A stretch of 64,000 nt of DNA, taken from NCBI RefSeq assembly GCF_001467695.1, contig NZ_LNYE01000020.1:616368-680367 (forward strand). Reading direction: 5' to 3'. Shown one piece after another: positions 19,380-51,273 of the stretch. A model generated the notes under the pieces. The model made no database searches. It worked only from the letters and a program-made list of their open reading frames with translations, and was not told where the DNA came from. This stretch comes from Legionella gratiana. GTDB taxonomy: Bacteria; Pseudomonadota; Gammaproteobacteria; Legionellales; Legionellaceae. A program made the position numbers and the translations under genes. The number at the start of each line of letters is the position of its first letter. The first letter of the stretch is position 1.

Positions 19380-20129
19380 TCAAAGTAGAAATGGAATGAG
19401 CGCTTTTCTTTCCTTAGGATAATTGGAAAAATGTAAGTGATACCAACGATGATGGGTGATTGCTCGAGGAGCTAAATTGGCTATTGTCCACAAAGTAAAC
19501 GAAAAACCAGCAAGCGACCAGGTCGCCACGCCCCAACCAATCCATTCGAGAATTTCACCAAAATAGTTTGGACTGCTTAAAAAACGAAACATTCCACCAT
19601 AGGGTATTTTATAAGATCCGGGTTTTTTATTCTTATTCAGGTCAAACAAAATGTTGTCCGAGTTTTGATTGATTACAAATCCCGAAGCAAAAAGTATCAA
19701 ACCAACGATAAAATGGGGTGTTTGCAACGTTGAAAGTGTAATTTCTTGAAAATGAGTGAGCCAATAGGCATTTACAAAACCATTCACCGTGGTAAAAATC
19801 GTGGCTGATATCGTGATAACAATTGGAACCATTTTTGCATTTTTCAAGCGAAATGGATAGATTAAGGAACGATAGACGTAATGAAATTGCCACATTCCAA
19901 AAAATACCCACGTATAAGCAGATGGTTTTGTCATTAGAAAAACAACCAAAAATGTGATCACAGATGGCAATTCCATAAAACACCAAGAAACATTTGCAGG
20001 AATTTTAGGCGATTTGTTCTGTTGATCATAACGTCCGTAAGGCGCTCGTTTGAAAAAAAGCGTGAAAAATACGATAACCGCTAAAGCATTCCAGAAATGA
20101 AGAAATAAAGTTAGATCGTTTTGAGTCAT
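19380..20129 (-). CDS. Steroid 5-alpha-reductase family membrane enzyme
   Basis: A 249-residue membrane protein with about six segments and the C-terminal steroid 5-alpha-reductase domain. The diagnostic stretch runs YKIPYGGMFRFLSSPNYFGE, then EWIGWGVATWSL, ANLAPRAITHHRWY and FSNYPKERKALIPFLL, which closely follows eukaryotic SRD5A1-type enzymes that reduce the delta-4 bond of 3-ketosteroids with NADPH. The start at 20129 makes an ATGA overlap with the upstream dehydrogenase gene; an in-frame TTG at 20159 is less likely. It is the last gene of the sterol-modification operon. Some bacterial relatives act on other lipids, so substrate is inferred from context. Confidence 0.85.
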   Translation of the reverse strand: MTQNDLTLFLHFWNALAVIVFFTLFFKRAPYGRYDQQNKSPKIPANVSWCFMELPSVITFLVVFLMTKPSAYTWVFFGMWQFHYVYRSLIYPFRLKNAKMVPIVITISATIFTTVNGFVNAYWLTHFQEITLSTLQTPHFIVGLILFASGFVINQNSDNILFDLNKNKKPGSYKIPYGGMFRFLSSPNYFGEILEWIGWGVATWSLAGFSFTLWTIANLAPRAITHHRWYHLHFSNYPKERKALIPFLL

Positions 20130-21121
20130 AATTGTATTTTGCCACACTGTGAAAACCAATGAAGCGTATCATGAATCGTTGTTTCGATTTCAGTTTTTTT
20201 GTACCCTAATTCATTTTCAGCTTTCGTACAATCCACTGTTGGTGAATACATCAAAGTTTCAATTGAGTATTTTGTAAAGAGCGGTTCTGTATTCGTGATT
20301 TTAGAAAAAAACTCCATGAGGGGTACCACAAAGTAAAGCATGTTTGGGGGAAGAAACATACGAGTCATTTTTTTTTGTTTTACAATGGATATCAATTTGA
20401 CCAAATGATGCATGTTTATGTCATGGCCGCCTAAGATATAGCGCTCTCCAGATTTGCCTTTTTCAGCAGCAGCTATTGCTCCTTGAACCACGTCACGAAC
20501 ATCAACAAAATTGAATCCTCCTCGCACCAAAATAGGGATATGTCCTTTGTATATTTTAATTATTGCAGTTCCCATGAGGGATAATTTATGGTCATTTGGA
20601 CCGATTGTTCCTGTGGGATTAACCACAACGGCATTTAATCCTTGCTTACAACTATCAAGCACTATTTTTTCAGCATAGGCTTTAGATTGATCGTAAATAT
20701 TTACGGATTCTAAAGCAAGGGGGTAATTTTCATTTAAAATAGGAGTAGCATGGGATTTTTTATAATTTTGAATGAGGGCGTGAATGGAACTAAAATGAAC
20801 TAGCTTTTTTACTTGATTTTTAAGGCAAGCATTGACCACATTTTGGGTGCCTTGGATGTTTGTTTTACGAACTTCCTCTTTTTCTCGATTTGTAATGGTA
20901 ATTTTCGCGGCTAAATGAAAAACTGTATCAATATCTTGAGTGGCATCATACAAAGATTGCGGATGTAAAATATCTCCTTTGCACACTTCCAAAGGAAAAT
21001 GAGTAAGGTATTTGGGTATTTCACTTCGCACAAGTATTCGGACATCATATTGTTTTTTAATAAGCTCGGCAACGAGGTTATTTCCAATGTGTCCACTAGC
21101 TCCCGTGACTAATATTTTCAT
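20126..21121 (-). CDS. Extended SDR, 3beta-hydroxysteroid dehydrogenase-like
   Basis: A 331-residue NAD-binding dehydrogenase or epimerase. The Rossmann motif is VTGASGHIG (residues 5-13), the catalytic serine region HFSSIHALI (about 119-127), and Tyr/Lys occur as YDQSKAYAEK. The C-terminal FNFVDVRDVVQGAI and GGHDI pattern is shared by 3beta-HSD, NSDHL and dihydroflavonol reductase relatives. ATG 21121 is chosen because AGGA lies upstream; the in-frame ATG at 21145 has no site. It lies 55 bp after the methyltransferase gene and overlaps the 5-alpha-reductase gene by four bases. A role in oxidising a sterol 3-hydroxyl is inferred from that company. Confidence 0.85.
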   Translation of the reverse strand: MKILVTGASGHIGNNLVAELIKKQYDVRILVRSEIPKYLTHFPLEVCKGDILHPQSLYDATQDIDTVFHLAAKITITNREKEEVRKTNIQGTQNVVNACLKNQVKKLVHFSSIHALIQNYKKSHATPILNENYPLALESVNIYDQSKAYAEKIVLDSCKQGLNAVVVNPTGTIGPNDHKLSLMGTAIIKIYKGHIPILVRGGFNFVDVRDVVQGAIAAAEKGKSGERYILGGHDINMHHLVKLISIVKQKKMTRMFLPPNMLYFVVPLMEFFSKITNTEPLFTKYSIETLMYSPTVDCTKAENELGYKKTEIETTIHDTLHWFSQCGKIQL

Positions 21122-21176
21122 GATTGTTGATTTCCTATCCAGCATTTTAAAGTGCCAGTCATAATAAGGCTAGACA

Positions 21177-22181
21177 TTAGGAGTCGGTCTTTCTAAAGAC
21201 GAATAACCGAGAGAACGACACAATCCCTAAGCGGTCCGCATCGACCAGGGCATTCACAGTCCCTGCAATGAACGTGTTGTAGAAGTCTGAAAATCCTTTT
21301 GGAAAAAGACGGACTGTTTCAAGGCCTAAAATCGCATTCTTCACTGCCCGAGAGCGAAGCGCGCCAGCCAGAAGCTTGTTTTCGGTAAAAAAATAGCTCC
21401 ATCCAAGATCTTTTGAAATCTCTGTTTCAGAGAGTAGGCTTAAGCCCACGCTGCGGGCCGCATCTATCAGATCTTCGCTTGTGTGCAGAGGCGGCATTCC
21501 AGTAACAAATTCAATCCGCTCAACCAACGCGCGATGCTGTGGGCTATTCACATCGTATTTGGATGTCAGAACTGCATCATAGACTACATATCGTGCATTT
21601 GGTTCCATTACACGATGGACTTGTCCAAAGACTTTTGGAAGCAGGTTTTTGGAAATGTATTTAAGTGAGTAAATGCTGTAAGCTGAGCCCAGGAAATCAT
21701 TAGGAAACGGCAAATTTTGTGTATAGTCACCTTGTCTGACTTCGCACAAGTGATCCAGATTTTGTTCGTGATTGAGGGCATTCGCTCGTTCTACTTCGGC
21801 CTGAGACAATGTGAGCCCAAGCACTTTTCCCTGGGAAAGACGGGCAATATCACGCGCTGCGCCACCAAGACCGCAGCCCATATCGAGGGCTGTTTTTCCC
21901 GGTAAAAGACAGAGTACTGAATTGATCCGTCTATGCAAGTTCGAAATGGTTTCCTCGCGTGACTGTCCCACATGATCGGGCGGATAAAAAACCCAACTAC
22001 TGCCGTAAGCAATTTCAATCACCTCCGCCATGAGGTCATAATAATGAGAAGCAACGACTGCATGGTTATGGGTCTGCTTCGCAAGAGAGAATAGGCGGTC
22101 GTGTTCTTTTACAAAAGAGCCCAAGTCATTCCGCTTTAACAGGAAGCGTAACGTCTTCATGTAATTGATTAATAGCGACAT
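21177..22181 (-). CDS. Sterol C-methyltransferase family protein
   Basis: A 334-residue SAM-dependent methyltransferase resembling sterol methyltransferases (ERG6/SMT, nematode STRM-1 type). An aromatic region, IAYGSSWVFYPP (about 57-68), sits where SMTs have their YxxGWGxSFHF sterol motif. SAM motif I is LDMGCGLGGAARDIA (about 99-113). YDAVLTSKYDVNSPQHR matches the SMT block after motif III, and the C-terminus with FPKGFSDFYNTFIAGTV resembles the Sterol_MT_C domain. AAGGAG lies six bases before the ATG. G+C is visibly higher than in its neighbours, suggesting recent transfer. Whether it methylates C-24, C-4 or a non-sterol cannot be told. Confidence 0.85.
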   Translation of the reverse strand: MSLLINYMKTLRFLLKRNDLGSFVKEHDRLFSLAKQTHNHAVVASHYYDLMAEVIEIAYGSSWVFYPPDHVGQSREETISNLHRRINSVLCLLPGKTALDMGCGLGGAARDIARLSQGKVLGLTLSQAEVERANALNHEQNLDHLCEVRQGDYTQNLPFPNDFLGSAYSIYSLKYISKNLLPKVFGQVHRVMEPNARYVVYDAVLTSKYDVNSPQHRALVERIEFVTGMPPLHTSEDLIDAARSVGLSLLSETEISKDLGWSYFFTENKLLAGALRSRAVKNAILGLETVRLFPKGFSDFYNTFIAGTVNALVDADRLGIVSFSRLFVFRKTDS

Positions 22182-22582
22182 AGGTTTCTCCTTGAAATTT
22201 GAACGCGTTCCTATTTTATGTGAGGATATCGTGATTTATCCACATCAAATTGTATACCTTTGACTAGGATGTGTGTCAACAGCCCCAGTATGAAGATAAA
22301 ATTTGTACTGATAGTTGATTTTCTAGGATTATTGCGTTTGCATTTTGTTTCATTTGATCATGAAAACAACTATGCTTTTTATTAATGATCAATTATAAAA
22401 ATAACGAATTAAGAATTCTGCGTGTTTTTAAGAATTATTAACTTGGATTGATGTTATTCGTTCAGTTCGTGCAAGGGATACAAAAAAATAGCCCAATTCA
22501 AGGGATGATAAATTGACGAAAAATGAATAGAAGTGTTGCTCAGCATAATTCATTTACTCAAGAAACCACATGGAGCATACGT
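22182..22582. promoter_or_regulatory. Divergent intergenic region, sterol operon and NRPS
   Basis: This AT-rich gap separates the start of the methyltransferase gene from the NRPS gene and must hold promoters for both. No clear -35/-10 pair, dyad or small gene was recognised. The stretch from 22523 could be coding if the NRPS uses its upstream ATG. Confidence 0.3.
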
Positions 22583-25500
22583 ATGACCTCATCATTAATG
22601 GATTTGAGTTCAGAAGAACGGCACAAAATCTTAGAAAAATGGAATCAAACTGAATCTAAATATCCTCATAATAAAATCATACCGGAGTTGTTTGAGGAAC
22701 AAATTGAAAAGAAATTACAGCAAACAGCGTTGATCTATAAATCAAATATACTTGCTTACAAAGATATTAATAATCAAGCTAATCAATTGGCGCACCATTT
22801 AAGAGAAATAGGGGTCAAACAAAATACCTTAATCGCAATCTGCATGGAGCCTTGTTTTGAATTATTAATCAGTATCTTAGGAATTGTAAAATCGGGAGGT
22901 GCTTATATTCCATTGGATCCGAACAATCCTGCACTACGTCAAAAAATCATATTATCTGATTCGCGTGCAAAAATTCTAATTACTCATTCTCATCTAGCGA
23001 ATCAATTTGAAGGCATGAGACTTTCTCAATTGATATATTGGGATATCGTCAAATCTAAGCTAGCTACATATCCTACCACCAATCCTAAGCATATTAATAA
23101 AATGAATGACTTAGCTTATGTAATTTACACATCAGGATCGACTGGGAAACCTAAAGGTGTCATGATAACACATCGTAATGTAAATCATTTTGTGCATTGG
23201 TTTGGTAAGGCTATTTCAATTTCATCGAAAGATATTTTTGATTTTTCATCGTCTATCTCATTCGATTTTTCAGTGGCATGTACTTTATTTCCCTTATTAA
23301 AAGGAATAAAAATAGCAATTTGTTCTGAAACCGATAAAAAAAATCCTTACTTGTACTTAAAGCATTTACAGGATGCACATGTTTCTATCATTAAAATCAC
23401 ACCAAGTCGTTTTAGACAAATCAACAGTATTGTATTGAGCGAGAAAAAAAAACTTGATTTAAAATACATTGTCTTTGGCGGTGAGACTTTGTTAGCAAAA
23501 GATATTAAGGATTGGTTAAAGCAGTTCCCACAGCATAAGCTGTTTTGTGAATATGGTCCCACAGAAGCTACTGTTGCTTCATCATGGATTATTATTGATA
23601 AAAATAATATTGATCACTATAAGCATCGAATTCCAATTGGAAAACCAGCACTAAATACGAAATTTTTTATATTGGATAAAAATATGCAACCTGTACCTGT
23701 TGGTGCTTTGGGGGAGTTATATATTGGTGGTGATGGCATTGCTAAAGGATATTTAAATAAGAAAAAAATAACAGAGAAACGATTTGTTGATAATCCCTTT
23801 AACTCAGGTCGATTGTTTAAAACCGGTGATTTATGTCGCTATTTAAAAGATGGAAATGTTGCTTTTGTTGAAAGAGAAGATCATCAAATTAAAATTAGGG
23901 GATTCCGAGTTGAAACTGGTGAAGTTGAAACATGTTTGGCATCGCATGCGAACATTCAAAATGTTGTTATTGTAGTGAGGTCCATGCAGGGAGAGTTTGA
24001 CGAAAAACAATTAATTGCTTATTGCATTCCCAAAGAATCCGCAAAATTAGATGCGAATGAATTGCGTGATTATCTTAAAAACCAGTTGCCTGATTATATG
24101 ATACCTTCATTTTTTATGATTTTAGATGAGTTCCCTTTGTCTGCAAGTGGTAAATTAGATACCCATAAATTACCTGGACCCGAAGATAAAGAATGTAACC
24201 AAGTTATTGAACCACGAAATGAGATTGAAATGGTACTTAAAAAAATTTGGTTAGAAACATTAAATTTAAAACATCTTAGTATCAATGATAATTTTTTTGA
24301 CTTAGGTGGCAATTCATTGTCAGCAGTTCGATTAATCACTAAAATTCGAAAAATCACGAATAAAAATATTTTATTACAGGATTTGTATCATACAGAAACA
24401 CTCGTTGATCTTGCTGAGGTTATCAAGGGTGCAGCAGATATTTCTGAAGATGAAGATGAAAATTATCGTCCATCACGTTTAAAAGCAATGCCATTAAATG
24501 AATTGCAATTTTTATTATGGTTAATGAGATTATTTTATCCGAAGTCGAAAGTATCCAATATAGTGGCTAGAAGACGTATAGCTGGAAATTTGGATGAAAA
24601 GAAATTAAATTTTGTCTTTGAATTATTATGTAAAAAGCATCCAATACTATGCTATCGCATAGCAAGATATTCACCTTTGCAATATCCACAGAAGAATATG
24701 CGTCAATTTAAAGTCATTGAAAAAGATATTAGAGGCTTGAAATTGGAAGAACAAGAGCACGAATTACATAGGTCGTTAGATGATTTAGCGAATCGAAGGT
24801 GGAAGAAAAGGCTACCATTAATCCTAGTTAAATTATTCCGACTTGGAAATAATTCTTGTGAACTACAAATTGCCCTATCCCATTTTATCAGTGATGAACT
24901 ATCGGCGGATATTGTATTAAATGAACTATCTCATGCGTATGTTACGTCTAAGAATGAATCGGAGACAGTTGGGCAACAGGAATTGGTTTTTTACGATCAT
25001 ATTTTACGTGAACAAAGAGATCTTAGTAAAAACTTATCAAGAAATATCGATTTCTGGAGCGATTATTTAAAAAATGTTCCCTTATTGGTTTTCCCGCGAA
25101 ATCAAATTTTAGAGAGTATTGATTCATCTTGTACTACTTATTTTGAAATACCCAAAAATACCTTGCAAGGATTACAGCACTTTTGCGAAAAAAATCGAGT
25201 TAGTATTGCAGATACATTGATAGCAGCAACTGGTTATATTTTGGCACCGTACGTACATGATAAAAATAAAATAGTGGCTATGAATTTTGTTAAATCAATT
25301 CGTAATAGTGAGATCTATGATAATGCAATAGGTCTTTTTGTTCGAAGTGATGTTATTAAAATCGACTTAAATCAACAAGTCACCTTATTTAAATTAGCAA
25401 AGCAAATACAGAGTTCGCGAATTGAAAATTATTCTTATCAAGCATGTCCCGTTATTATAAAAATTGCGTGTCTTTTAAAAAAAGATTGGGAAAACAAAAA

Positions 25501-25879
25501 AATTAGAAATTTTTTTGTAACGCTTGTCGCAAAAATATATACGTGTATTTTCTATAAATATAAATTAAATTATGAAATTTTATTGATGTTTGGTCGCGTA
25601 TTTTTGGCACGTAAAAAACACAGTTTTCTAGTTAATATCAATATTATGAATAATTTTATTTATGATAGCTCTGAAACCAAATTGTTAGGGTTTAAGCAAA
25701 AGCCATTTAAAGCATATCATGATGATAAGTTGGTTGAAAAAAATGTATTGAATGTTTGGTTTAATCAAGACGGGGATGGTACGTCATATCTCATAATTTC
25801 GGGTAATTTAAAGTCTGAATTTCGAAATACTCTTGGTACCCATTTATTAGAAATAATGGCCTCGTGTACATTACAGTGA
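22583..25879 (+). CDS. Single-module NRPS: adenylation, carrier and condensation domains
   Basis: Nonribosomal peptide synthetase of about 1,098 residues. The adenylation domain (about 1-520) has YTSGSTGKPKG, SISFDFSVA, EYGPTEATVASS, LFKTGDL and LSASGKLD, so it should activate an amino acid. The carrier domain has DNFFDLGGNSLSAV with the phosphopantetheine serine. The C-terminal part (about 640-1098) is condensation-like: SHFISDE replaces HHxxxDG, keeping the second His and the Asp, and IGLFVRSDVI matches a later motif. No thioesterase follows. ATG 22583 has GGAG seven bases upstream; 22523 is an alternative start. A terminal condensation domain implies transfer to a free amine or alcohol acceptor. 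Confidence 0.88.
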   Translation: MTSSLMDLSSEERHKILEKWNQTESKYPHNKIIPELFEEQIEKKLQQTALIYKSNILAYKDINNQANQLAHHLREIGVKQNTLIAICMEPCFELLISILGIVKSGGAYIPLDPNNPALRQKIILSDSRAKILITHSHLANQFEGMRLSQLIYWDIVKSKLATYPTTNPKHINKMNDLAYVIYTSGSTGKPKGVMITHRNVNHFVHWFGKAISISSKDIFDFSSSISFDFSVACTLFPLLKGIKIAICSETDKKNPYLYLKHLQDAHVSIIKITPSRFRQINSIVLSEKKKLDLKYIVFGGETLLAKDIKDWLKQFPQHKLFCEYGPTEATVASSWIIIDKNNIDHYKHRIPIGKPALNTKFFILDKNMQPVPVGALGELYIGGDGIAKGYLNKKKITEKRFVDNPFNSGRLFKTGDLCRYLKDGNVAFVEREDHQIKIRGFRVETGEVETCLASHANIQNVVIVVRSMQGEFDEKQLIAYCIPKESAKLDANELRDYLKNQLPDYMIPSFFMILDEFPLSASGKLDTHKLPGPEDKECNQVIEPRNEIEMVLKKIWLETLNLKHLSINDNFFDLGGNSLSAVRLITKIRKITNKNILLQDLYHTETLVDLAEVIKGAADISEDEDENYRPSRLKAMPLNELQFLLWLMRLFYPKSKVSNIVARRRIAGNLDEKKLNFVFELLCKKHPILCYRIARYSPLQYPQKNMRQFKVIEKDIRGLKLEEQEHELHRSLDDLANRRWKKRLPLILVKLFRLGNNSCELQIALSHFISDELSADIVLNELSHAYVTSKNESETVGQQELVFYDHILREQRDLSKNLSRNIDFWSDYLKNVPLLVFPRNQILESIDSSCTTYFEIPKNTLQGLQHFCEKNRVSIADTLIAATGYILAPYVHDKNKIVAMNFVKSIRNSEIYDNAIGLFVRSDVIKIDLNQQVTLFKLAKQIQSSRIENYSYQACPVIIKIACLLKKDWENKKIRNFFVTLVAKIYTCIFYKYKLNYEILLMFGRVFLARKKHSFLVNINIMNNFIYDSSETKLLGFKQKPFKAYHDDKLVEKNVLNVWFNQDGDGTSYLIISGNLKSEFRNTLGTHLLEIMASCTLQ

Positions 25880-31683: not shown

Positions 31684-34137
31684 ATGGCTAAGAAAGCGGA
31701 TAAACCAATTGTCATAATCACGGGTTCTAGTGGCCGAATTGGGACTGCTCTTGCCAATGCTTTACGAAAATCCTATAAAATTGTTGGATTTGATCAAGAT
31801 AAAGATGCTTGTGAAATTCCGTGTGACATTACTTCAGCTACTTCATTAGCTTTATCTTTTCGATTATTTAAAGAGAAATATGGGAGTAAAATTGCGGCAG
31901 TGATTCATCTTGCTGCCTATTTTGATTTTACAGGCGAAGAGTCGCCTTTGTATCAGTCTGTAAATGTAAATGGTACAAAAAAGTTACTTATGGCATTACA
32001 AGATTTTGAGGTGGAGCGATTTATTTACGCCAGTACTATGCTCGTACATGAGCCTTGTATTTTAGGCGAAGTCCTTAATGAAAATGCGCCTCTTAAGCCG
32101 AAATGGCCCTATCCAAAATCCAAATTAGAAGCTGAAAAGGTAATTAAAAAATATCATGGTAAAATACCTTATCTGATTTTACGCTTAGCAGGTTTATATG
32201 ATGACGTGACCTGTGTTCCGACACTTGCGAACCAAATTGCTCGAACATATGAACGAGAGATTAAAAGTCATCTATACGCGGGCGATTTAAATGTTGGTCA
32301 ATCATTTATTCATCAGAAAGATTTAATAGACCTTTTTAAAAAAGCTCTTTTTTACCGGAATGAATTATCCCAAAATGAAATAATCCTTGCAGGAGAGCCC
32401 AAAACAGTCAGTTATGGAAAATTACAAAATCTTATAGCTCAATTAATTCATGGAGAACAATCTTCTCTCTATAAGGTTCCATCTTCCGTTGCTAAAGCAG
32501 GTGCGTGGCTTGAGTACCAGGCAGAACCATTAATACCTGATGATTTTGATCAAGGGGAAAAGCCATTTATTCGTCCATTTATGATTGATCTTGCTTCAGA
32601 TAATTATGCTTTAGATATTACTAGAGCAAAAAAATATCTGCATTGGGAGCCTAAATACTCAATTGAAGAAACTCTTCCTAAAATTATCGATTCTTTAAAG
32701 GCCGACCCAGAAAGTTGGTATAAACAAAATAGATTAATCCAACCAGACTGGATGGCTGCTATTAAGCATAATCCAGAGAAAATACGCTCTCTTTATGAGA
32801 TTAACTTTCGCAAACAACACCAGCAAACCCTATGGGCACATTTTTTAAATATGGGTTTTGGCTTGTGGCTTATAATTTCACCAGCATCCCTAGGATATAC
32901 ATCTTATCCTCTAATATTAAGTGATATTATTAGTGGTGGTGCACTTCTTTTATTTGCATCTTTAAGCTTATCCTGGCGTTTATCATCAGCTCGATGGGTT
33001 TGTGCTTTGATTGGTCTGTGGTTAATATTTGCCCCTTTGGTTTTTTGGGCGCCTACAGCTGCTGCGTATTTAAATGATACTCTTATTGGAGCACTAATTA
33101 TTGGTTTTTCTGTACTAATTCGACCTGAAATAGGGGTGGCTCCTAATGCGGCTTTAGAAGGGCCGGTTATTCCTCCGGGATGGGGCTATTCACCTTCCAG
33201 CTGGTTCCAGCGGCTGCCAATAATAATCTTAGCTTATGTAGGTTTTTTTATTTCACAATATATGGCGGCTTATCAACTCGGTCATATTGATCATGTATGG
33301 GAACCATTTTTTGTGGGTTATTTACCCGATGCAAAAAATGGAACTGAAGAAATTATTACCTCTTATGTATCTAAAGCATTTCCAGTCCCAGATGCAGGAT
33401 TAGGTGCTACGGTTTACATTTTAGAAATTTTAACAGGGATTATTGGTGGCCAAAATCGGTGGCGTACCATGCCATGGTTGGTACTTTTGTTTGGTTTTAT
33501 GATTGTGCCATTAGGAATAGTCTCTATTACCTTTATCGTCATTCAACCAATTCTATTAAATACATGGTGTACTTTATGTCTAATTGCCGCGGTTGCCATG
33601 CTTATCCAAGTCCCCTATTCTTTTGATGAGATAATTGCAACGTGTATTTTTCTTTGGCGAAGATGGAAAGCTGGGAGGCCATTATTGAGAATTTTCTTTG
33701 TTGGTGATAGCGATGAGACAACACAATCCAAAAAAGAATTAGATTCTTTTGAGCAATCGCCTTTTGTAATTCTACGAGAAATGTTAAGTGGAGGCATCAC
33801 TTTGCCTTGGAATTTAATGGGATGCATCCTCATTGGTATCTGGTTAATGTGCACGCGTATTGTTTTGGATACAACGGGACCAATGGCTAATAGTGATCAT
33901 CTCATTGGTTGTCTTATCATAACGGTAACCATAACAGCATTAGCTGAAACAGTTCGTATCTTGCGCTTTCTTAATTTATTTTTTGCTGTTGCTTTGTTAA
34001 TTACACCATTTATTTATCATGCATCAGGATGGGGGATCTTTGCAAGTCTGATTAGTGGCGGTCTTTTATTCTTCTTATCCATTCCACGGGGGAAAATTCG
34101 ATTCTCTTACGGAACTTGGGATAAAGTTATTCGTTGA
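31684..34137 (+). CDS. SDR-SPW-VKOR fusion membrane protein
   Basis: An 817-residue fusion. Residues 1-345 form an extended SDR domain: VITGSSGRIGTAL is the NAD-binding motif, YASTMLVHEP the serine region and YPKSKLEAEK the Tyr/Lys pair. Residues about 380-480 are paired membrane segments of the SPW-repeat type (NMGFGLWLIISPASLGY and ALIGLWLIFAPLVFW). The rest is a polytopic domain of vitamin K epoxide reductase type with the redox pair TWCTLC and an upstream extracytoplasmic loop. Membrane redox chemistry on a quinone or lipid is expected. AAGGA precedes the ATG. The architecture exists in other bacteria as far as I recall, but its substrate is unknown. Confidence 0.8.
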   Translation: MAKKADKPIVIITGSSGRIGTALANALRKSYKIVGFDQDKDACEIPCDITSATSLALSFRLFKEKYGSKIAAVIHLAAYFDFTGEESPLYQSVNVNGTKKLLMALQDFEVERFIYASTMLVHEPCILGEVLNENAPLKPKWPYPKSKLEAEKVIKKYHGKIPYLILRLAGLYDDVTCVPTLANQIARTYEREIKSHLYAGDLNVGQSFIHQKDLIDLFKKALFYRNELSQNEIILAGEPKTVSYGKLQNLIAQLIHGEQSSLYKVPSSVAKAGAWLEYQAEPLIPDDFDQGEKPFIRPFMIDLASDNYALDITRAKKYLHWEPKYSIEETLPKIIDSLKADPESWYKQNRLIQPDWMAAIKHNPEKIRSLYEINFRKQHQQTLWAHFLNMGFGLWLIISPASLGYTSYPLILSDIISGGALLLFASLSLSWRLSSARWVCALIGLWLIFAPLVFWAPTAAAYLNDTLIGALIIGFSVLIRPEIGVAPNAALEGPVIPPGWGYSPSSWFQRLPIIILAYVGFFISQYMAAYQLGHIDHVWEPFFVGYLPDAKNGTEEIITSYVSKAFPVPDAGLGATVYILEILTGIIGGQNRWRTMPWLVLLFGFMIVPLGIVSITFIVIQPILLNTWCTLCLIAAVAMLIQVPYSFDEIIATCIFLWRRWKAGRPLLRIFFVGDSDETTQSKKELDSFEQSPFVILREMLSGGITLPWNLMGCILIGIWLMCTRIVLDTTGPMANSDHLIGCLIITVTITALAETVRILRFLNLFFAVALLITPFIYHASGWGIFASLISGGLLFFLSIPRGKIRFSYGTWDKVIR

Positions 34138-44226: not shown

Positions 44227-45078
44227 TTATTCTACCAACCACTGCGCTTTGCGCCGCATCTTTTCACTGCGGGATAATCGTTTATGACCCGATTCGTCCT
44301 TCCAGTATTCCCGTTGTTGAACAAACGGTACTATCATTACCTGTTTTAAGTGATTATCCTTTTTCCGCGCATATCCAGGAACACCGATATCAATGCGTTC
44401 CTGGGAGACACCTAAACCTATAGTTTGGTGTAATCTGTCCCAAATCGAAAAAACAACAGAGTAGTTTGAATCCGTTTCTCTCCGAAAATTAGAGTGATGA
44501 ATTCCATGCATTCTTGGTGTGACGAAAATAAAGTTCAGCGCCTGCTCCAAACGCAAAGGTAAACGCATATTTGAATGATGGAAAAAAGTACTCATCTGAA
44601 ATAAGACTTCGTACATCAAAAAAGTACTCGTTGATACGCCGATGAACGCTACTTGAAGAGCTCGAAAAAACGTAGAAAGCGCCACTTCACCAGGGTGAAA
44701 TCGAAAACCAGTGGAAACATCAAGATCGGGATCGAGATGGTGTACATTATGAAAACGCCATAGGAACGGAATTTTGTGGTTGGCAATATGCCAATAATAG
44801 AAGCTAAGATCCAACAATAAAAACCCGACCAAAACTTCCCAAAGGCCTGTAACTTTAAACCACTGCATTAGTCCGAACGGCGTGTTGGCGGTCCAACCAA
44901 GGAAAAATCTTGTTGTCGGACGTATCAGAAAAAAGGCTACAGTAAAGGTCGTTAAGGAAACTGCAATATTAACAGTCAGGCGGGAAAGGGTGTCTCTTTT
45001 ACGTTTCCTGAGGGGAAACATTCTTTCCAGAAAAAATAAAATGAGTGTAAATACAGTCGCAATAAATATTCCAGTCAA
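44227..45078 (-). CDS. Sterol desaturase / fatty acid hydroxylase family protein
   Basis: A 283-residue membrane di-iron enzyme that would hydroxylate or desaturate a lipid. Histidine clusters are YYWHIANH, FHNVHH and the late RMHGIHHSNF, as in the sterol desaturase superfamily; about four hydrophobic segments precede or surround them. The reading frame begins at a TTG (45078) with AAGGA seven bases upstream, while the nearby ATG is out of frame, so TTG is the probable start. It is 21 bp after the small exported protein gene and on the same strand. G+C is raised, as in the neighbouring unknown gene. Substrate is unknown. Confidence 0.85.
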   Translation of the reverse strand: MTGIFIATVFTLILFFLERMFPLRKRKRDTLSRLTVNIAVSLTTFTVAFFLIRPTTRFFLGWTANTPFGLMQWFKVTGLWEVLVGFLLLDLSFYYWHIANHKIPFLWRFHNVHHLDPDLDVSTGFRFHPGEVALSTFFRALQVAFIGVSTSTFLMYEVLFQMSTFFHHSNMRLPLRLEQALNFIFVTPRMHGIHHSNFRRETDSNYSVVFSIWDRLHQTIGLGVSQERIDIGVPGYARKKDNHLKQVMIVPFVQQREYWKDESGHKRLSRSEKMRRKAQWLVE

Positions 45079-46705: not shown

Positions 46706-47758
46706 ATGAAAAATACAGCATTCACTTTAATTACAGAGAATCATTACCCTAAAGATTCCGTACTTATAAAGTCATTAGATAAAGCCTCTGCTATGGAAAT
46801 TGCCCAAAGAATATTAATGGAAGTAATGATTTTTCGTCGTGTTCCGAAGGGTATTAGCTTATGTAGTAGAGATTGTCAAAAGTGCTCTTTACCCCATTTG
46901 CCAAAAATCATCTCAGCAGTTAAAAAGAATGAGCCTGTTACTTTTATAGTACCGGCTTTCCCTGGAAAGTCTCCAAATCCTGAAAAAGTTCTGGGTCCTT
47001 TGCCCGATCATGCTGAACGACTTTCTCTTAATTTTTTGGGAACACTTTGTCAGCGAATAAAAAAATTTTATACACCCGGCGTTAAAATTATTCTGTGTTC
47101 TGATGGCAGGGTTTTTAGTGATGTGCTGGGCATGAAAGAAAGTAATGTGACCGCCTACCAAGTTGAGCTAGATAGACTTATAAAGGAAATGTCTCTTTCA
47201 GACCTATCTCTTTTTAACCTTGATTACGTTTATAAAGATCTTCATTTTGTCCGAATGCGTGAGGAGCTTATGAAAAGTTATGGACAGTCCTTAGAGTTTC
47301 TTAAGCTCAAAATTCGTAACGGCGCCAAATCATCAGCAAATCCTGATGAGGAAGAGGCAAACCGTATGTACAGTGGAATCATTCGTTTTCTATTTGAAGA
47401 TGCCATGCACGCAGGTCAAACAAAAAGTCGTTCTGCTGTCCAAAAAGAATCTCGTTCTAAAGCATATGAGGTCATAAGAAGAAGTAATGCTTGGAGTGTG
47501 CTCATTTCTGAGCGTTTTCCTGAGGCAGTGCGACTGTCCATTCATCCACAAACTTGCGGATCAAAAAAATTAGGAATTCGTTTAATAGGAAATGAAAGCT
47601 GGATGACCCCCTGGCATGGTGTTGCTGTTGAAAGCAAGAAAGGGTATGTCTTACTAAAACGTTTAGAAGCGGAAGCTTTAGGTGCAAAATTGATTTATTC
47701 TTCTGATGGACGTTCTAGCCATTATCGATTAATGACGGAGGTGTCTTATGAAGTATAA
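46706..47758 (+). CDS. pvcA: Isocyanide synthase, PvcA/Dit1 family
   Basis: A 350-residue enzyme of the isonitrile synthase family, which turns the alpha-amine of an aromatic amino acid (tyrosine or tryptophan) into an isocyanide using ribulose-5-phosphate. Typical family blocks are FIVPAFPGKSPNPEKVLG (about 80-97), KIILCSDGRVFSDVLG (about 129-144), SIHPQ and LIGNESWMTPWHG. GGAGG precedes the ATG. Its last 11 bases overlap pvcB. It opens the four-gene cluster. I recall that PvcA homologues exist in Legionella and are iron-responsive, but the amino acid used here cannot be read from sequence. Confidence 0.92.
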   Translation: MKNTAFTLITENHYPKDSVLIKSLDKASAMEIAQRILMEVMIFRRVPKGISLCSRDCQKCSLPHLPKIISAVKKNEPVTFIVPAFPGKSPNPEKVLGPLPDHAERLSLNFLGTLCQRIKKFYTPGVKIILCSDGRVFSDVLGMKESNVTAYQVELDRLIKEMSLSDLSLFNLDYVYKDLHFVRMREELMKSYGQSLEFLKLKIRNGAKSSANPDEEEANRMYSGIIRFLFEDAMHAGQTKSRSAVQKESRSKAYEVIRRSNAWSVLISERFPEAVRLSIHPQTCGSKKLGIRLIGNESWMTPWHGVAVESKKGYVLLKRLEAEALGAKLIYSSDGRSSHYRLMTEVSYEV

Positions 47759-48584
47759 AGTAACGCATCTGCAACCATTTGGTGTGCTCTTAGAATCTAT
47801 GTATGAAAAGACGAAGGTGAAGGATCTAGATGTAGAGAACTTGCGTCATTTATTTGAGAAGAACCAACTTCTTGTATTAAGAGGGTTCGAGACATTTCAA
47901 AACGCTGAGGATTTTTCTAATTATTGCGAATTCTGGGGCCAAGTTAGTCTTTGGCCATTTGGAAAAGTGCTTGAGTTAATTGAGCAAGACAACCCAGAAG
48001 ATCACATTTTTGATCACAGCTATATGCCGCTGCATTGGGATGGTATGTATCGACCTCAAGTTCCCGAATATCAGATTTTTCATTGTGTTAAAGCGCCCTT
48101 GCCTGGACAAGGAGGACGGACGACTTTTTCAAACACCATTTTAGCATTAAAGTGTGCCTCTTCTGAAATAAAAGAGTTTTGGAGTAAAGTGACGGGTACT
48201 TATCAACGAAAAATGGAATTTTATAGTAGCAAGACGGTATCACCAATTATTACTAAGCATCCGCAAAAGAATTGTTCAGTAATTCGTTACAATGAACCTC
48301 CATCTATAGATAAAGGCCATTTTATAAACCCACCTGATCTGGAATTTACTGGTATTAACCATGAAGAGTTAGATAGGTTCCATCGAAGTTTAGAAGAAGC
48401 CCTTTATTCACCGGATAATTTCTACGCCCATGAATGGCAAACAGGGGATATAGTCATCGCTGATAATTTTTCGCTATTACATGGTAGAGAGGGATTTGCC
48501 TCCAAGTCCCCTCGTCATATCCAACGAGTTCATGTTTTGAGTAATCCTCCTTTTGATAATCCTGGTCTGGAGTCTTATGAATGA
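47748..48584 (+). CDS. pvcB: Fe(II)/2-oxoglutarate dioxygenase, PvcB-like
   Basis: A 278-residue TauD-type oxygenase. The iron triad is His96-x-Asp98 in PLHWDGMY and the late histidine in FSLLHGREGF (about 248), with the 2-oxoglutarate arginine in SPRHIQRVH (about 260). In the pvc pathway PvcB desaturates the isocyanide amino acid, with loss of the carboxylate in some homologues, to give a vinyl isocyanide. It begins inside the pvcA gene and its TGA overlaps the next ATG, so translation is coupled. Confidence 0.92.
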   Translation: MKYKVTHLQPFGVLLESMYEKTKVKDLDVENLRHLFEKNQLLVLRGFETFQNAEDFSNYCEFWGQVSLWPFGKVLELIEQDNPEDHIFDHSYMPLHWDGMYRPQVPEYQIFHCVKAPLPGQGGRTTFSNTILALKCASSEIKEFWSKVTGTYQRKMEFYSSKTVSPIITKHPQKNCSVIRYNEPPSIDKGHFINPPDLEFTGINHEELDRFHRSLEEALYSPDNFYAHEWQTGDIVIADNFSLLHGREGFASKSPRHIQRVHVLSNPPFDNPGLESYE

Positions 48585-50050
48585 GTGCGCAAGTTGCAGA
48601 TGTTGTGATTGTTGGTGCTGGTCCGGTAGGTCTCATGTGTGCCTACCTAGGACAACTTTGTGGTATCCATACTGTTATTGTCGATAAGTCTGAGGGTCCT
48701 TTAAAGGTTGGAAGAGCTGATGCGCTTAATGCACGTACCTTACAACTTCTTGAGTTAGTTGATTTATTTGATGAACTTTATCCTTTAGGAAAAACCTGCA
48801 ATACCAGTTCTGTTTGGGCTAACGGAACATTCATCTCCCGACAATCGTCATGGTGGGAGGAGCTGGAGGGTTGTTTGCATAAACATTTCCTCATGCTGGA
48901 TCAGTCCTATATAGAAAAACTGTTAGATGAGAAACTTAAAGAGACTGCTGCAGCAGTAAAGCGTTCAACAGCAATCATAAACATTGAGCTTAATAAATCG
49001 GGATGTCTCACGACTCTTTCAAATGGAGAACGTATTCAATCAAGATACGTCATTGGCGCGGATGGTGCGCGTTCCTTTGTTCGAAATCACTTTGAAATAC
49101 CTTTTGAAATCACCCGGCCACAAATTATATGGGCTGTAATCGACGGCATTATCGACACCGATTTTCCAAAAGTTCCTGAAATCATTGTTTTTCAGGCTGC
49201 GACATCCGATGTAGCTTGGATTCCAAGAGAAGGTGAAATCGACAGGTTTTACGTAAGAATGGATACGAAAGACTTTAGCTTGAATGAAGCAATTGACAAA
49301 ATTAATCATGCAATGCAGCCTCATTCCTTATCTTTTAAGAAGATTGTCTGGTTTTCACAATTTTCGGTCAAGGAGTCTGTAGCCGAGAACTTCTTCGTGC
49401 ATGATCGTATTTTTCTTGCAGGGGATGCATGTCATATTCATTCAGTAAATGGGGGACAAGGCCTCAACACAGGTCTTGCAGATGCATTTAATCTCATGTG
49501 GAAGTTATATAGGGTTCTTTATTGCGGAGCTCCCCGAGAACTTTTACAGAGTTATGAAGACGAGCGTAAACCAGTGGCGCGTGATGTGATAGAGACTTCA
49601 GGTGAGCTCGTCCGTTCGACTAAGTATTCACTGAATGGGACTCACGCCCAGGACTACGTAAAGATTATCCAAAGACGGGCTGGAAACATCACGGGGATGG
49701 GTATTCGTTATGGAAACCTAGGACTCAATGGTTCTCGACTCTTTGATTTTGAAGTGTTTAACGGCATTGTCAAAACGCGACTTTACTCTCTTTTAGACTA
49801 TATGAAATTTACGTTACTCCTCTTTGGTTCTTGTGAGTTGGATCTAAAATTTCCAGAGTTTGTCTCCGTTATTCAAATTTATCCAAACCAATGTCAAGGA
49901 AATTTTTGGACAAATAACATTCAATATATAAACCAGGCAATTTTAGTAAGACCCGATTCCTATATTCAATCCTCCACGTCATTAGAGAATGTTGAGTCTT
50001 TAGTTGAATTGGCCAGAAAAATCAATACAAATAAGGTACCTAGTATATGA
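48581..50050 (+). CDS. FAD-dependent aromatic monooxygenase
   Basis: A 489-residue flavoprotein of the para-hydroxybenzoate hydroxylase type. The FAD motif is VVIVGAGPVGLM (about 8-19), the second flavin motif ADGARSFVR follows, and FLAGDACHIHSVNGGQGLN (about 284-302) is the third. It would hydroxylate the aromatic ring or otherwise oxidise the isocyanide intermediate. This is a different family from Pseudomonas PvcC, so the product likely departs from paerucumarin. It overlaps pvcB and the next gene by four bases on each side. Confidence 0.9.
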   Translation: MSAQVADVVIVGAGPVGLMCAYLGQLCGIHTVIVDKSEGPLKVGRADALNARTLQLLELVDLFDELYPLGKTCNTSSVWANGTFISRQSSWWEELEGCLHKHFLMLDQSYIEKLLDEKLKETAAAVKRSTAIINIELNKSGCLTTLSNGERIQSRYVIGADGARSFVRNHFEIPFEITRPQIIWAVIDGIIDTDFPKVPEIIVFQAATSDVAWIPREGEIDRFYVRMDTKDFSLNEAIDKINHAMQPHSLSFKKIVWFSQFSVKESVAENFFVHDRIFLAGDACHIHSVNGGQGLNTGLADAFNLMWKLYRVLYCGAPRELLQSYEDERKPVARDVIETSGELVRSTKYSLNGTHAQDYVKIIQRRAGNITGMGIRYGNLGLNGSRLFDFEVFNGIVKTRLYSLLDYMKFTLLLFGSCELDLKFPEFVSVIQIYPNQCQGNFWTNNIQYINQAILVRPDSYIQSSTSLENVESLVELARKINTNKVPSI

Positions 50051-51273
50051 ATAAACCTGTTATTATTGTCGAGCCAGTATCCTCAGGAGTAGAGTTGGCT
50101 CCAGCGTTTAAAGCTCGAGGGATACCTGTTATTGCGGTTACACTTAAATCTCTAGATTGGGTTGGATTTGGAGCTAAAATCCAAACTTCCGACTTTGTTG
50201 CGATTATTCCAGACCAACCAAATCTTATAGAGATTCTTAGGAAGTATGAGCCTCTTGCCATTATTCCTGGTGCTGAGGAAGCGGTTCCTCTTGCGGAAGC
50301 TCTGGCTATAGCGTTAACACCTCAGTTTGCCAATGATCCTAAAAAATCAGTGCATCGATTCCATAAGGCGTTCATGCAAAAAGCGTTGCAGGAAGCAGGG
50401 GTTCCAGCCCTTAAGACGCTCCATACTTCGTCTGAAAATGAAGCTGAAAGTTGGATTAAGACCAACGGATTCGTTGATTCTCCGTTTATAATTAAACCCC
50501 CGGCATCTGCTGGCAGCGATAAAGTTTTCCACATTCCAGCAAAAGGAGATTGGAAAAAGGCATTCAACCGAGTTTTATCTGAACCCTCTAAACTTACTGG
50601 GAAAATGAACGAAAGCGTTGTCGTTCAGGAACTGGCAATGGGTACGGAATTTGCTGTAGGTACTGTGAGTGCCAATGGAAAACACCATTTGGCACATTTA
50701 ATTAAATACAATAAAACATCATTCAATGGTCGTAAAACGGTTTACGACCATGTTGAATTTGTACCTTATAGTGAAGAACTGTATGGTGAGTTATTTGACT
50801 ATACTCAAAAGGCATTAGATGCTTTGGGAGTCCGCTGGGGAGCTGCTCATAATGAAATCATGCTTACTAAAGAAGGTCCTCGCCTCATCGAAACAGGTGC
50901 CAGAATGTGCGGTGGTCCAGTTGTGGGCTTTGCTCGCGAAGCTACTGGCAGCAGTCAAGCGGATAAATTAGTTGAGATCTATGCTGATGGTGATGTCGCA
51001 ACAAAAAAATATGTATTTAAAAAAACGGTTGTACCTGTCTTTTTGAAGTCACCAGCTCAAGGAACAATATCGAATGTTGAAACCTTCGCTGACATTTCTA
51101 AATTGCCGACTTTTCTTAATGAACATATTTGGTTTAAAAATGGTGATCTTGTTCCCCAAACAGTAGATTATCTAACGAGTATTGGAATAGTGGGGCTGGC
51201 TGGAGATAGGGAGTCAATTTTATTAGATTATGAAAAAATTCGAACTATGGAAGCGAAATTAGTTATCGAATGA
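50047..51273 (+). CDS. ATP-grasp carboxylate-amine ligase
   Basis: A 408-residue ATP-grasp enzyme of the kind that joins amino acids (BacD-like L-amino acid ligases). ATP-binding features are FIIKPPASAGSDKVFH (about 140-155), VVVQELAMGTEFAVG and the metal-binding LIETGARMCGGPV (about 281-293). It starts by ATGA overlap with the monooxygenase gene and ends the operon. It may attach an amino acid to the isocyanide product or to its carboxylated precursor. The pairing with pvcAB seems to be a distinguishing feature of this cluster. Substrates are inferred only. Confidence 0.88.
   Translation: MNKPVIIVEPVSSGVELAPAFKARGIPVIAVTLKSLDWVGFGAKIQTSDFVAIIPDQPNLIEILRKYEPLAIIPGAEEAVPLAEALAIALTPQFANDPKKSVHRFHKAFMQKALQEAGVPALKTLHTSSENEAESWIKTNGFVDSPFIIKPPASAGSDKVFHIPAKGDWKKAFNRVLSEPSKLTGKMNESVVVQELAMGTEFAVGTVSANGKHHLAHLIKYNKTSFNGRKTVYDHVEFVPYSEELYGELFDYTQKALDALGVRWGAAHNEIMLTKEGPRLIETGARMCGGPVVGFAREATGSSQADKLVEIYADGDVATKKYVFKKTVVPVFLKSPAQGTISNVETFADISKLPTFLNEHIWFKNGDLVPQTVDYLTSIGIVGLAGDRESILLDYEKIRTMEAKLVIE

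What the first reader, a model, noticed from the sequence alone, without database searches (positions are those of the whole stretch)
19380..22181. Three-gene bacterial sterol-modification operon
The sequence shows a co-directional set with a 55-bp gap and then an ATGA overlap: an SMT-like methyltransferase with a Sterol_MT_C-like end, a 3beta-HSD-like SDR, and a steroid 5-alpha-reductase-like membrane enzyme. Each family alone is known in bacteria; as a unit they spell out oxidation at C-3, reduction of a delta-4 bond and methylation of the sterol skeleton or side chain. That set resembles the chemistry nematodes use to make 4-methylsterols. Legionella does not make sterols as far as I know, so the likely substrate is host sterol in amoeba or other eukaryotic membranes.
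Basis: partly seen in the sequence, partly recalled or inferred. Interest (0 to 1): 0.85.

Follow-up and report, generated by a model that had tools for sequence, protein, structure and literature searches.

The report
Nematode-type sterol-methylating operon in Legionella
Seven Legionella genomes carry a three-gene unit whose methyltransferase is a relative of the nematode sterol enzyme STRM-1, and the three enzymes together would likely turn sterols taken from a eukaryotic host into 4-methylsterols, a reaction already described in nematodes.

Summary
Three co-directional genes (minus strand, 22181 to 19380) encode a methyltransferase, an extended SDR and an SRD5A-type membrane reductase, with a 55-bp gap and an ATGA overlap. 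The methyltransferase groups with nematode STRM-1 (sterol C4-methyltransferase, 4-SMT; support 100/100 and 100/99), not with 24-SMTs or tocopherol methyltransferases. It aligns end to end with STRM-1 (34%), has the 4-SMT letter in all 19 diagnostic columns and lacks the 24-SMT aromatic region. Published work says C. elegans 4-SMT needs a 3-oxo sterol and rejects 3beta-OH sterols and cholest-4-en-3-one; a C3 dehydrogenase plus a delta-4 reductase would make its substrate. The trio is intact in 7 of 45 Legionella genomes, is the only gene set shared by all seven neighbourhoods examined, and is under purifying selection. The SDR-SRD5A pair alone recurs in distant phyla; the methyltransferase, of higher GC, looks added on. 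The own genome shows no squalene/oxidosqualene cyclase hit, so the substrate is probably host sterol. Main caveat: the reductase has M-E-Y where tested 5-alpha-reductases have Q-E-Y. No activity has been shown. The papers found here report no bacterial 4-SMT.

The parts
21177..22181 (-). STRM-1/4-SMT-type SAM-dependent methyltransferase, predicted to methylate C-4 of 3-oxo sterols
   Evidence: 34% identity over 333 columns to Acanthocheilonema viteae STRM-1; inside the STRM-1 clade; 19 diagnostic columns; AF2 model mean pLDDT 89.9
20126..21121 (-). extended SDR, predicted 3beta-hydroxysteroid dehydrogenase (C3 oxidation, possibly delta5 to delta4 isomerisation and final C3 reduction)
   Evidence: PF01370 and PF01073 over their cut-offs; YxxxK at 143; one clade (94/97) with 10 SDRs that sit directly upstream of SRD5A-like genes elsewhere, apart from HpnA
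19380..20129 (-). SRD5A-type membrane reductase, predicted 3-oxo-delta4-steroid 5alpha-reductase, M-E-Y subfamily
   Evidence: PF02544 166.7 bits; PbSRD5A 7c83 E 8.4e-61 and human SRD5A2 7bw1 E 2.1e-40; E57, Y91 and 7 of 8 NADPH residues kept, Q56 is M
20126..20129 (-). ATGA stop/start overlap joining SDR and SRD5A (translational coupling likely)
   Evidence: sequence; kept in 7 of 7 Legionella loci
21122..21176 (-). 55-bp spacer between methyltransferase and SDR
   Evidence: 24-112 bp in the 7 Legionella loci

Best explanation
The three genes are one conserved co-directional unit whose methyltransferase belongs to the nematode STRM-1 (sterol C4-methyltransferase) clade; the unit likely works on sterols taken from a eukaryotic host, which its dehydrogenase and reductase would convert to 5alpha-3-keto sterols that the methyltransferase would then methylate at C-4. 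Step 1 (inferred): the SDR oxidises the 3beta-hydroxyl of a delta5 or delta5,7 sterol (cholesterol, or amoebal ergosterol and 7-dehydroporiferasterol), giving a delta4-3-ketone. Step 2 (inferred): the SRD5A-type enzyme reduces the delta4 bond with NADPH to a 5alpha-3-ketone. Step 3 (inferred from STRM-1 membership; the reaction is published for C. elegans 4-SMT): the methyltransferase enolises the 3-ketone and puts a SAM methyl on C-4alpha. Step 4 (inferred): the SDR reduces the ketone back to 3beta-OH, giving a 4alpha-methyl stanol or delta7-stenol (lophanol/lophenol type). Shown here: gene order and its conservation, clade membership of the methyltransferase, purifying selection, and no cyclase hit in the own genome.
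For: (1) Profile search: outside Legionella, all named proteins among the hits at E 4.8e-71 or better are nematode ones, including C. elegans STRM-1 P0155; the rest there are unnamed. (2) Trees: one clade with nematode STRM-1, support 100/100 among 51 rows and 100/99 among 33; holding Legionella with 24-SMTs is rejected, AU p 0.0035, and with tocopherol methyltransferases, p 0.0046. (3) 19 columns kept in 41 or more of 43 4-SMT-clade proteins (one column in 42 of 42) and different in all six 24-SMTs compared (in one column, P68, these have a gap); the window protein has the 4-SMT letter in each (with the invariant list). (4) Published enzymology: C. elegans 4-SMT takes cholestan-3-one, cholest-5-en-3-one and lathosterone, not 3beta-OH sterols and not cholest-4-en-3-one (PMC6997595 section 16), so the two companion enzymes are of the kinds that would make its substrate. 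(5) The trio is intact and adjacent in 7 of 45 Legionella genomes, it is the only gene set shared by all seven neighbourhoods of 18-24 kb, and dN/dS is 0.07-0.24 over 21 pairs per gene. (6) An SDR lies directly upstream of the SRD5A-like gene in 10 of 15 non-Legionella loci. (7) No PF13243 cyclase hit in the own genome, while a PF01222 sterol-reductase-family gene is present. (8) Acanthamoeba trophozoites make ergosterol and 7-dehydroporiferasterol (PMC6495176 passages).
Against: No activity has been measured. Identity to STRM-1 is 34%. The SRD5A has M where tested 5alpha-reductases have Q56; Q56A/L abolished human SRD5A2 activity (PMC7815742 section 9). M is the rule among its nearest homologues (117 of the best 120 of 835 hits), none of which is known to me to be characterised. 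R171, an NADPH contact, is N. The SDR's best NCBIfam models are HpnA (255.8 bits) and SdmB (197.2), both under their cut-offs. The SDR-SRD5A pair also occurs in an archaeal MAG and in Neomarinimicrobiota MAGs, where a sterol substrate is not obvious. None of the 15 other genomes of SRD5A-like loci searched has a methyltransferase near 4-SMT strength (best E 3e-37, a 24-SMT-like protein). No sterol uptake gene is shared beside the trio. The cyclase search used PF13243 only, and the squalene-epoxidase search was uninformative.
Confidence: 0.7

Rival explanations
1. The trio acts on a bacterial or acquired lipid other than a sterol (an isoprenoid or polyprenol-type enone, or a secondary metabolite), with the SDR and SRD5A doing oxidation, enone reduction and re-reduction and the methyltransferase an alpha-methylation of the ketone.
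For: The SDR-SRD5A pair sits in 10 of 15 loci, several from lineages not known to me as sterol makers, and M-E-Y is a subfamily trait; an NRPS gene lies next to the trio in the window.
Against: The NRPS was not found in the other six neighbourhoods of 18-19 kb. The methyltransferase is inside the STRM-1 clade. The SRD5A is closest among solved chains to steroid 5alpha-reductases.
Confidence: 0.15
2. The SDR-SRD5A pair reduces host stenols to 5alpha-stanols and the methyltransferase works separately, or only caps a minor product; the unit is mainly a sterol detoxification or membrane-tuning system.
For: The pair exists without the methyltransferase beside it in 10 of 15 loci; the methyltransferase has a different GC (0.466-0.492 against 0.360-0.403) and so perhaps another origin.
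Against: The methyltransferase is adjacent to the pair in all 7 Legionella genomes that have it and has the lowest dN/dS range of the three.
Confidence: 0.08
3. A 24-SMT-like enzyme that methylates the sterol side chain.
For: Distant homology to 24-SMTs; sub-threshold Sterol_MT_C match.
Against: Region I lacks the 24-SMT aromatics; Y-x-L-K-Y replaces E-x-[TC]-C-H; union with 24-SMTs rejected.
Confidence: 0.03
4. Three unrelated housekeeping or relic genes that happen to be neighbours.
For: Surroundings are variable, as in accessory regions; 3' remnants of an SRD5A-like gene exist elsewhere.
Against: Same order and ATGA overlap in 7 of 7 loci, dN/dS well under 1.
Confidence: 0.02

Closest known systems
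Nematode STRM-1 / 4-SMT (sterol C4alpha-methyltransferase; C. elegans H14E04.1)
   Same: End-to-end homology, same length as the C. elegans protein (334 aa), same clade, same diagnostic residues, same lack of 24-SMT Region I aromatics; published need for a 3-oxo substrate
   Different: Here in a bacterium and in an operon with two enzymes of the kinds that would make its substrate; 34% identity; activity untested
SRD5A steroid 5alpha-reductases (human SRD5A2; bacterial PbSRD5A, 7c83)
   Same: PF02544, catalytic E57 and Y91, 7 of 8 NADPH residues
   Different: M in place of Q56 and N in place of R171; belongs to an M-E-Y subfamily often paired with an SDR
HpnA / SdmB / 3beta-HSD / NSDHL extended SDRs
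   Same: Extended SDR by Pfam, YxxxK, PF01073 match
   Different: Below the HpnA and SdmB cut-offs; forms a clade with SRD5A-paired SDRs
Bacterial sterol demethylases SdmA/SdmB and bacterial 24-SMTs
   Same: Bacterial sterol C-4 or methyl chemistry
   Different: SdmA/B remove a C-4 methyl and 24-SMTs act on the side chain (PMC6385002 and PMC10070321 passages); this unit would add a methyl at C-4
Legionella drancourtii sterol delta-7 reductase and Coxiella burnetii Stmp1
   Same: Sterol-modifying proteins of intracellular bacteria (PMC2667531 and PMC8787468 abstracts)
   Different: Reported as single genes and another reaction, not a three-step unit

Membership tests
4-SMT / STRM-1 | Groups with nematode STRM-1 and apart from 24-SMT and tocopherol methyltransferases | tested here: met
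   100/100, 100/99; AU tests, whose groups were named after the first trees had been seen
4-SMT / STRM-1 | Region I without the 24-SMT aromatic signature (PMC6997595 section 16) | tested here: met
   I-E-I-A-Y-G against Y-E-Y-G-W-G
4-SMT / STRM-1 | SAM-binding motif I | tested here: met
   D100, G102, C103, G104, G106 invariant over 16 rows
4-SMT / STRM-1 | C4alpha-methylation of 3-oxo sterols | not testable with these tools
   needs enzyme assay
24-SMT (ERG6) | Sterol_MT_C (PF08498) over its cut-off | tested here: not met
   15.5 bits, cut-off 21.7
24-SMT (ERG6) | Aromatic Region I | tested here: not met
SRD5A 5alpha-reductase | PF02544 over its cut-off | tested here: met
   166.7 against 22.6 bits
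SRD5A 5alpha-reductase | Q-E-Y motif of tested 5alpha-reductases (PMC7815742) | tested here: not met
   M-E-Y: E and Y kept, Q is M, as in 117 of the best 120 homologues; so it is filed in the PF02544 superfamily and only predicted to work like a 5alpha-reductase
SRD5A 5alpha-reductase | NADPH residues N160, D164, R171, N193, E197, R227, H231, Y235 | tested here: inconclusive
   7 of 8 kept, R171 is N
3beta-HSD-type extended SDR | PF01073 over its cut-off and YxxxK | tested here: met
   104.9 against 22 bits; YxxxK
3beta-HSD-type extended SDR | 3beta-OH steroid oxidation / delta5-delta4 isomerisation | not testable with these tools
   needs enzyme assay
HpnA | TIGR03466 over its cut-off | tested here: not met
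   255.8 against 367.65 bits; separate clade
SdmB | NF052578 over its cut-off | tested here: not met
   197.2 against 600 bits

The most novel reading that the evidence does not exclude
A group of Legionella species carries a bacterial operon for C4-methylation of sterols: it takes host sterols, oxidises and 5alpha-reduces them with a bacterial SDR-SRD5A module found across phyla, and methylates them with a STRM-1-type enzyme, making lophanol/lophenol-type sterols inside amoebae or nematodes. In C. elegans such sterols cannot serve as hormone precursors. The wider SDR-SRD5A module would then be a general bacterial stenol-to-5alpha-stanol pathway.
Probability: 0.5. Interest if true: 0.87.

Novelty: new variant of a known kind. 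Interest (0 to 1): 0.78.

Why it matters
Sterol C4-methylation was described in a 2019 review as restricted to nematodes (PMC6385002 passages) and in PMC6997595 as sporadic across eukaryotes (passages). A bacterial homologue in an operon with enzymes predicted to make its substrate would be a ready-made, testable version of a pathway whose C4-reductase and C3-reductase were identified in C. elegans by biochemical analysis (PMC6997595 section 17). It suggests that an intracellular bacterium remodels host sterols, adds a bacterial source to consider for 4-methyl steranes in the rock record, and makes a bacterial origin of nematode STRM-1, or the reverse transfer, a question that can be tested.

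Tried and rejected
Side-chain methyltransferase (24-SMT): rejected. Tocopherol methyltransferase: rejected. NRPS-linked natural product: the NRPS was not found in the other six neighbourhoods. Solved-structure searches with the methyltransferase gave mostly general class I methyltransferases (MitM, cyclopropane synthases, terpene C-methyltransferases) and did not identify the substrate; a chain named 24-sterol C-methyltransferase (6f5z) was a weak hit (E 6e-6). Promoter scan: 8 sites against a shuffle mean of 9.6; terminators 4 against 2.6; no information. Squalene-epoxidase family PF08491: weak hits in 45 of 45 genomes and also in the E. coli and Caulobacter controls, so uninformative. Direction of transfer between bacteria and nematodes: unresolved; the non-nematode proteins as one clade are not rejected (p 0.286), nor is Legionella plus nematodes (p 0.163). 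Of 195 Myxococcota genomes 4 had methyltransferase hits at 1e-30 (5 places): four proteins carry the 24-SMT signature and the fifth (L110) is a partial frame that groups with one of them.
Full report
WHAT IS THERE. The window lies in a Legionella genome. Contigs of six same-genus relatives match by length the named records of L. parisiensis, L. bozemanae, L. steelei, L. steigerwaltii, L. anisa and Legionella sp. PC1000. The three genes are on the minus strand in the order methyltransferase (22181-21177), SDR (21121-20126) and SRD5A-like reductase (20129-19380), with a 55-bp gap and an ATGA overlap.

CONSERVATION. Searches of 92 relatives (45 same-genus genomes with the own one, 12 from other genera of the family, 35 from the class) gave hits at E 1e-145 or better for all three proteins in the same seven Legionella genomes and in no other. 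Below that level the reductase hit three more genomes: a class-level one with a 45% homologue (G073), one Legionella with a broken remnant (G008), and a weak match (G062, E 2.6e-4); the methyltransferase (39 of 92 at 1e-3) and the SDR (85 of 92) have many distant relatives. In 7 of 7 loci the order and the ATGA overlap are kept, with methyltransferase-SDR gaps of 24-112 bp; dN/dS over 21 pairs each is 0.067-0.146 (methyltransferase), 0.107-0.205 (SDR) and 0.089-0.240 (reductase). When genes around the seven loci (18-24 kb each) were clustered, only the trio was present in all seven; the next most shared genes, a GntP-like permease and an enolase-superfamily enzyme, were in four. The unit has therefore held together while its surroundings changed. 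The co-occurrence was not corrected for the relatedness of the seven genomes.

THE METHYLTRANSFERASE IS A STRM-1 RELATIVE. A single-sequence search gave 10 proteins; the first named one outside Legionella was STRM-1 of the nematode Acanthocheilonema viteae, 34% identity over 99% of the query, E 2.5e-57. A profile search gave 113 proteins; outside Legionella all named ones at E 4.8e-71 or better are nematode proteins, including C. elegans P0155, beside unnamed ones (P0007 59%, P0140 46%, P0142, P0162 and P0165 37-41%). Only the 7,999 and 7,997 candidates sharing most words were scored in these two searches. In a tree of 51 chosen rows the 28 STRM-1-type rows form one clade at 100/100; in a tree of 33 rows with Myxococcota 24-SMTs added, 19 rows form one clade at 100/99. 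Both trees carry long-branch warnings, and the 24-SMTs do not form one clade in them. Holding Legionella with 24-SMTs is rejected (AU p 0.0035), as is Legionella with tocopherol methyltransferases (p 0.0046). In an alignment of 43 4-SMT-clade proteins (11 non-nematode, 32 nematode or nematode-like, two of these unnamed) and six 24-SMTs, 19 columns separate the groups, among them Y171, L173, K174 and Y175 where 24-SMTs have E, T or C, C and H. The aromatic Region I of 24-SMTs is missing from the window protein, as PMC6997595 reports for C. elegans 4-SMT. AlphaFold2 gives a confident model (mean pLDDT 89.9); its structural neighbours are small-molecule and lipid class I methyltransferases and do not decide the substrate.

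RARITY. With profile A3 only the own genome scored at E 1e-30 or better among 398 genomes of the phylum. Among 369 genomes of the class, 17 passed 1e-20, but apart from the own genome none was better than E 8.1e-27 and the matches covered only the middle of the profile. In both searches at most five candidates per genome were scored. Of 195 Myxococcota genomes four had hits, of the 24-SMT type. Of the 15 other genomes behind the SRD5A-like loci, none came near 4-SMT strength (best E 3e-37, L086, 24-SMT-like). The phylum and class searches are samples, not full scans.

WHY THREE GENES. PMC6997595 (abstract, passages and sections 16 and 17 read) reports that recombinant C. elegans 4-SMT methylates cholestan-3-one, cholest-5-en-3-one and lathosterone at C-4alpha, but not 3beta-OH sterols and not cholest-4-en-3-one. 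A C3-oxidising SDR and a delta4-3-ketone reductase are steps that would give it a substrate, and these are what the companion genes look like. The order fits their C. elegans scheme: C3 oxidation, delta4 reduction, C4 methylation, C3 reduction. Acanthamoeba trophozoites make ergosterol and 7-dehydroporiferasterol (PMC6495176 passages), which have the delta5,7 nucleus (recalled) of the intermediate used by C. elegans.

THE REDUCTASE. It matches PF02544 with 166.7 bits and is closest among solved chains to PbSRD5A (E 8.4e-61) and human SRD5A2 (E 2.1e-40). Catalytic E57 and Y91 and seven of eight NADPH residues are kept, but Q56 is M and R171 is N. The PbSRD5A paper (PMC7815742; passages and section 9 read) calls the Q-E-Y motif highly conserved in all 5alpha-reductases studied and shows loss of activity in Q56A/L of the human enzyme. 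Since 117 of the best 120 homologues (of 835 hits) also have M, this is a subfamily trait and not decay, but it leaves the substrate open.

THE SDR AND THE OLDER PAIR. Among 15 non-Legionella loci chosen by similarity of the reductase (14, one), 10 have an SDR directly upstream on the same strand; the other five do not (L068, L069, L077, L080, L081; L069 and L080 have a weaker SDR relative nearby). The three Legionella SDRs used and those ten form one clade (94/97, just under the star level), apart from HpnA and from other Legionella SDRs. The methyltransferase has GC 0.466-0.492 in all seven loci against 0.360-0.403 for the other two genes, as if it had been added to an existing SDR-SRD5A pair.

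SOURCE OF STEROL. The own genome has no hit to the squalene/oxidosqualene cyclase family PF13243 (2 of 45 Legionella do), so it probably does not make sterols; it does carry a PF01222 sterol-reductase-family gene, as do 34 of 45 genomes. A sterol delta-7 reductase was reported in L. drancourtii (PMC2667531, abstract), and Coxiella Stmp1 alters host cholesterol (PMC8787468, abstract). Host sterol is the natural substrate to propose, but import was not addressed.

PRIOR ART. Ten paper searches were answered (one search was an error). One search (sterol methyltransferase, bacteria, C-4, Legionella) found no paper. In one search none of the 15 listed papers (of 37) shows Legionella together with STRM-1, 4-methylsterol, lophenol or lophanol; one, on oomycetes, holds Legionella and 'sterol methyltransferase'. 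The other 22 were not listed, so this is not exhaustive, and subscription papers are mostly not held. A term search of the main text on bacterial 24-SMTs (PMC10070321) gave no occurrence of STRM, nematode or Legionella. A 2019 review calls C4-methylation restricted to nematodes (PMC6385002 passages). In C. elegans, replacing cholesterol with lophenol leads to dauer larvae because the needed hormone cannot be made from methylated sterols (PMC517820, abstract).

VERDICT. The gene unit, its conservation and the STRM-1 membership are well supported. The pathway on host sterol is the best-supported reading, at about 0.7. The largest uncertainty is the substrate of the M-E-Y reductase.

Noticed in passing
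window 46706-51273 (+): Co-directional DIT1/PvcA-type isocyanide synthase, TauD-type dioxygenase, FAD monooxygenase and ATP-grasp protein: looks like an isonitrile-type cluster (the isonitrile link is recalled).
   Followed up: no
window 56549-58666 (-): FGE-sulfatase/methyltransferase fusion with a sub-threshold-stretch DinB match at its start, resembling OvoA of ovothiol synthesis (the OvoA name is recalled).
   Followed up: no
window 22523-25879 (+): Single NRPS gene (adenylation, carrier, condensation) divergent from the trio; not found in the other six neighbourhoods.
   Followed up: partly
window 31684-34137 (+): Unusual fusion of an SDR (Epimerase), SPW repeats and a VKOR domain.
   Followed up: no
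window 44227-45078 (-): FA_hydroxylase-family (PF04116) protein in the same window.
   Followed up: no
L060 4285-4498; L061 4423-4638: Remnants matching only the 3' end of the SRD5A gene, at other places, in one genome with (G033) and one without (G008) the intact trio.
   Followed up: partly
L008 1459-2472 (-), L010 1432-2445 (+), L009 1465-2490 (-): A second, divergent SMT-like methyltransferase family in two other Legionella and one other genus of the family, function unknown.
   Followed up: partly
L059, L070-L076, L078, L079: SDR-SRD5A pairs in Myxococcota, Acidobacteria, Neomarinimicrobiota and an archaeal MAG, among others: candidate bacterial stenol-to-5alpha-stanol module.
   Followed up: partly
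proteins P0006 and P0013: A methyltransferase (78%) and a reductase (78%) that both lie on a contig of 8830 bases, so probably an eighth, unnamed carrier of the unit.
   Followed up: no
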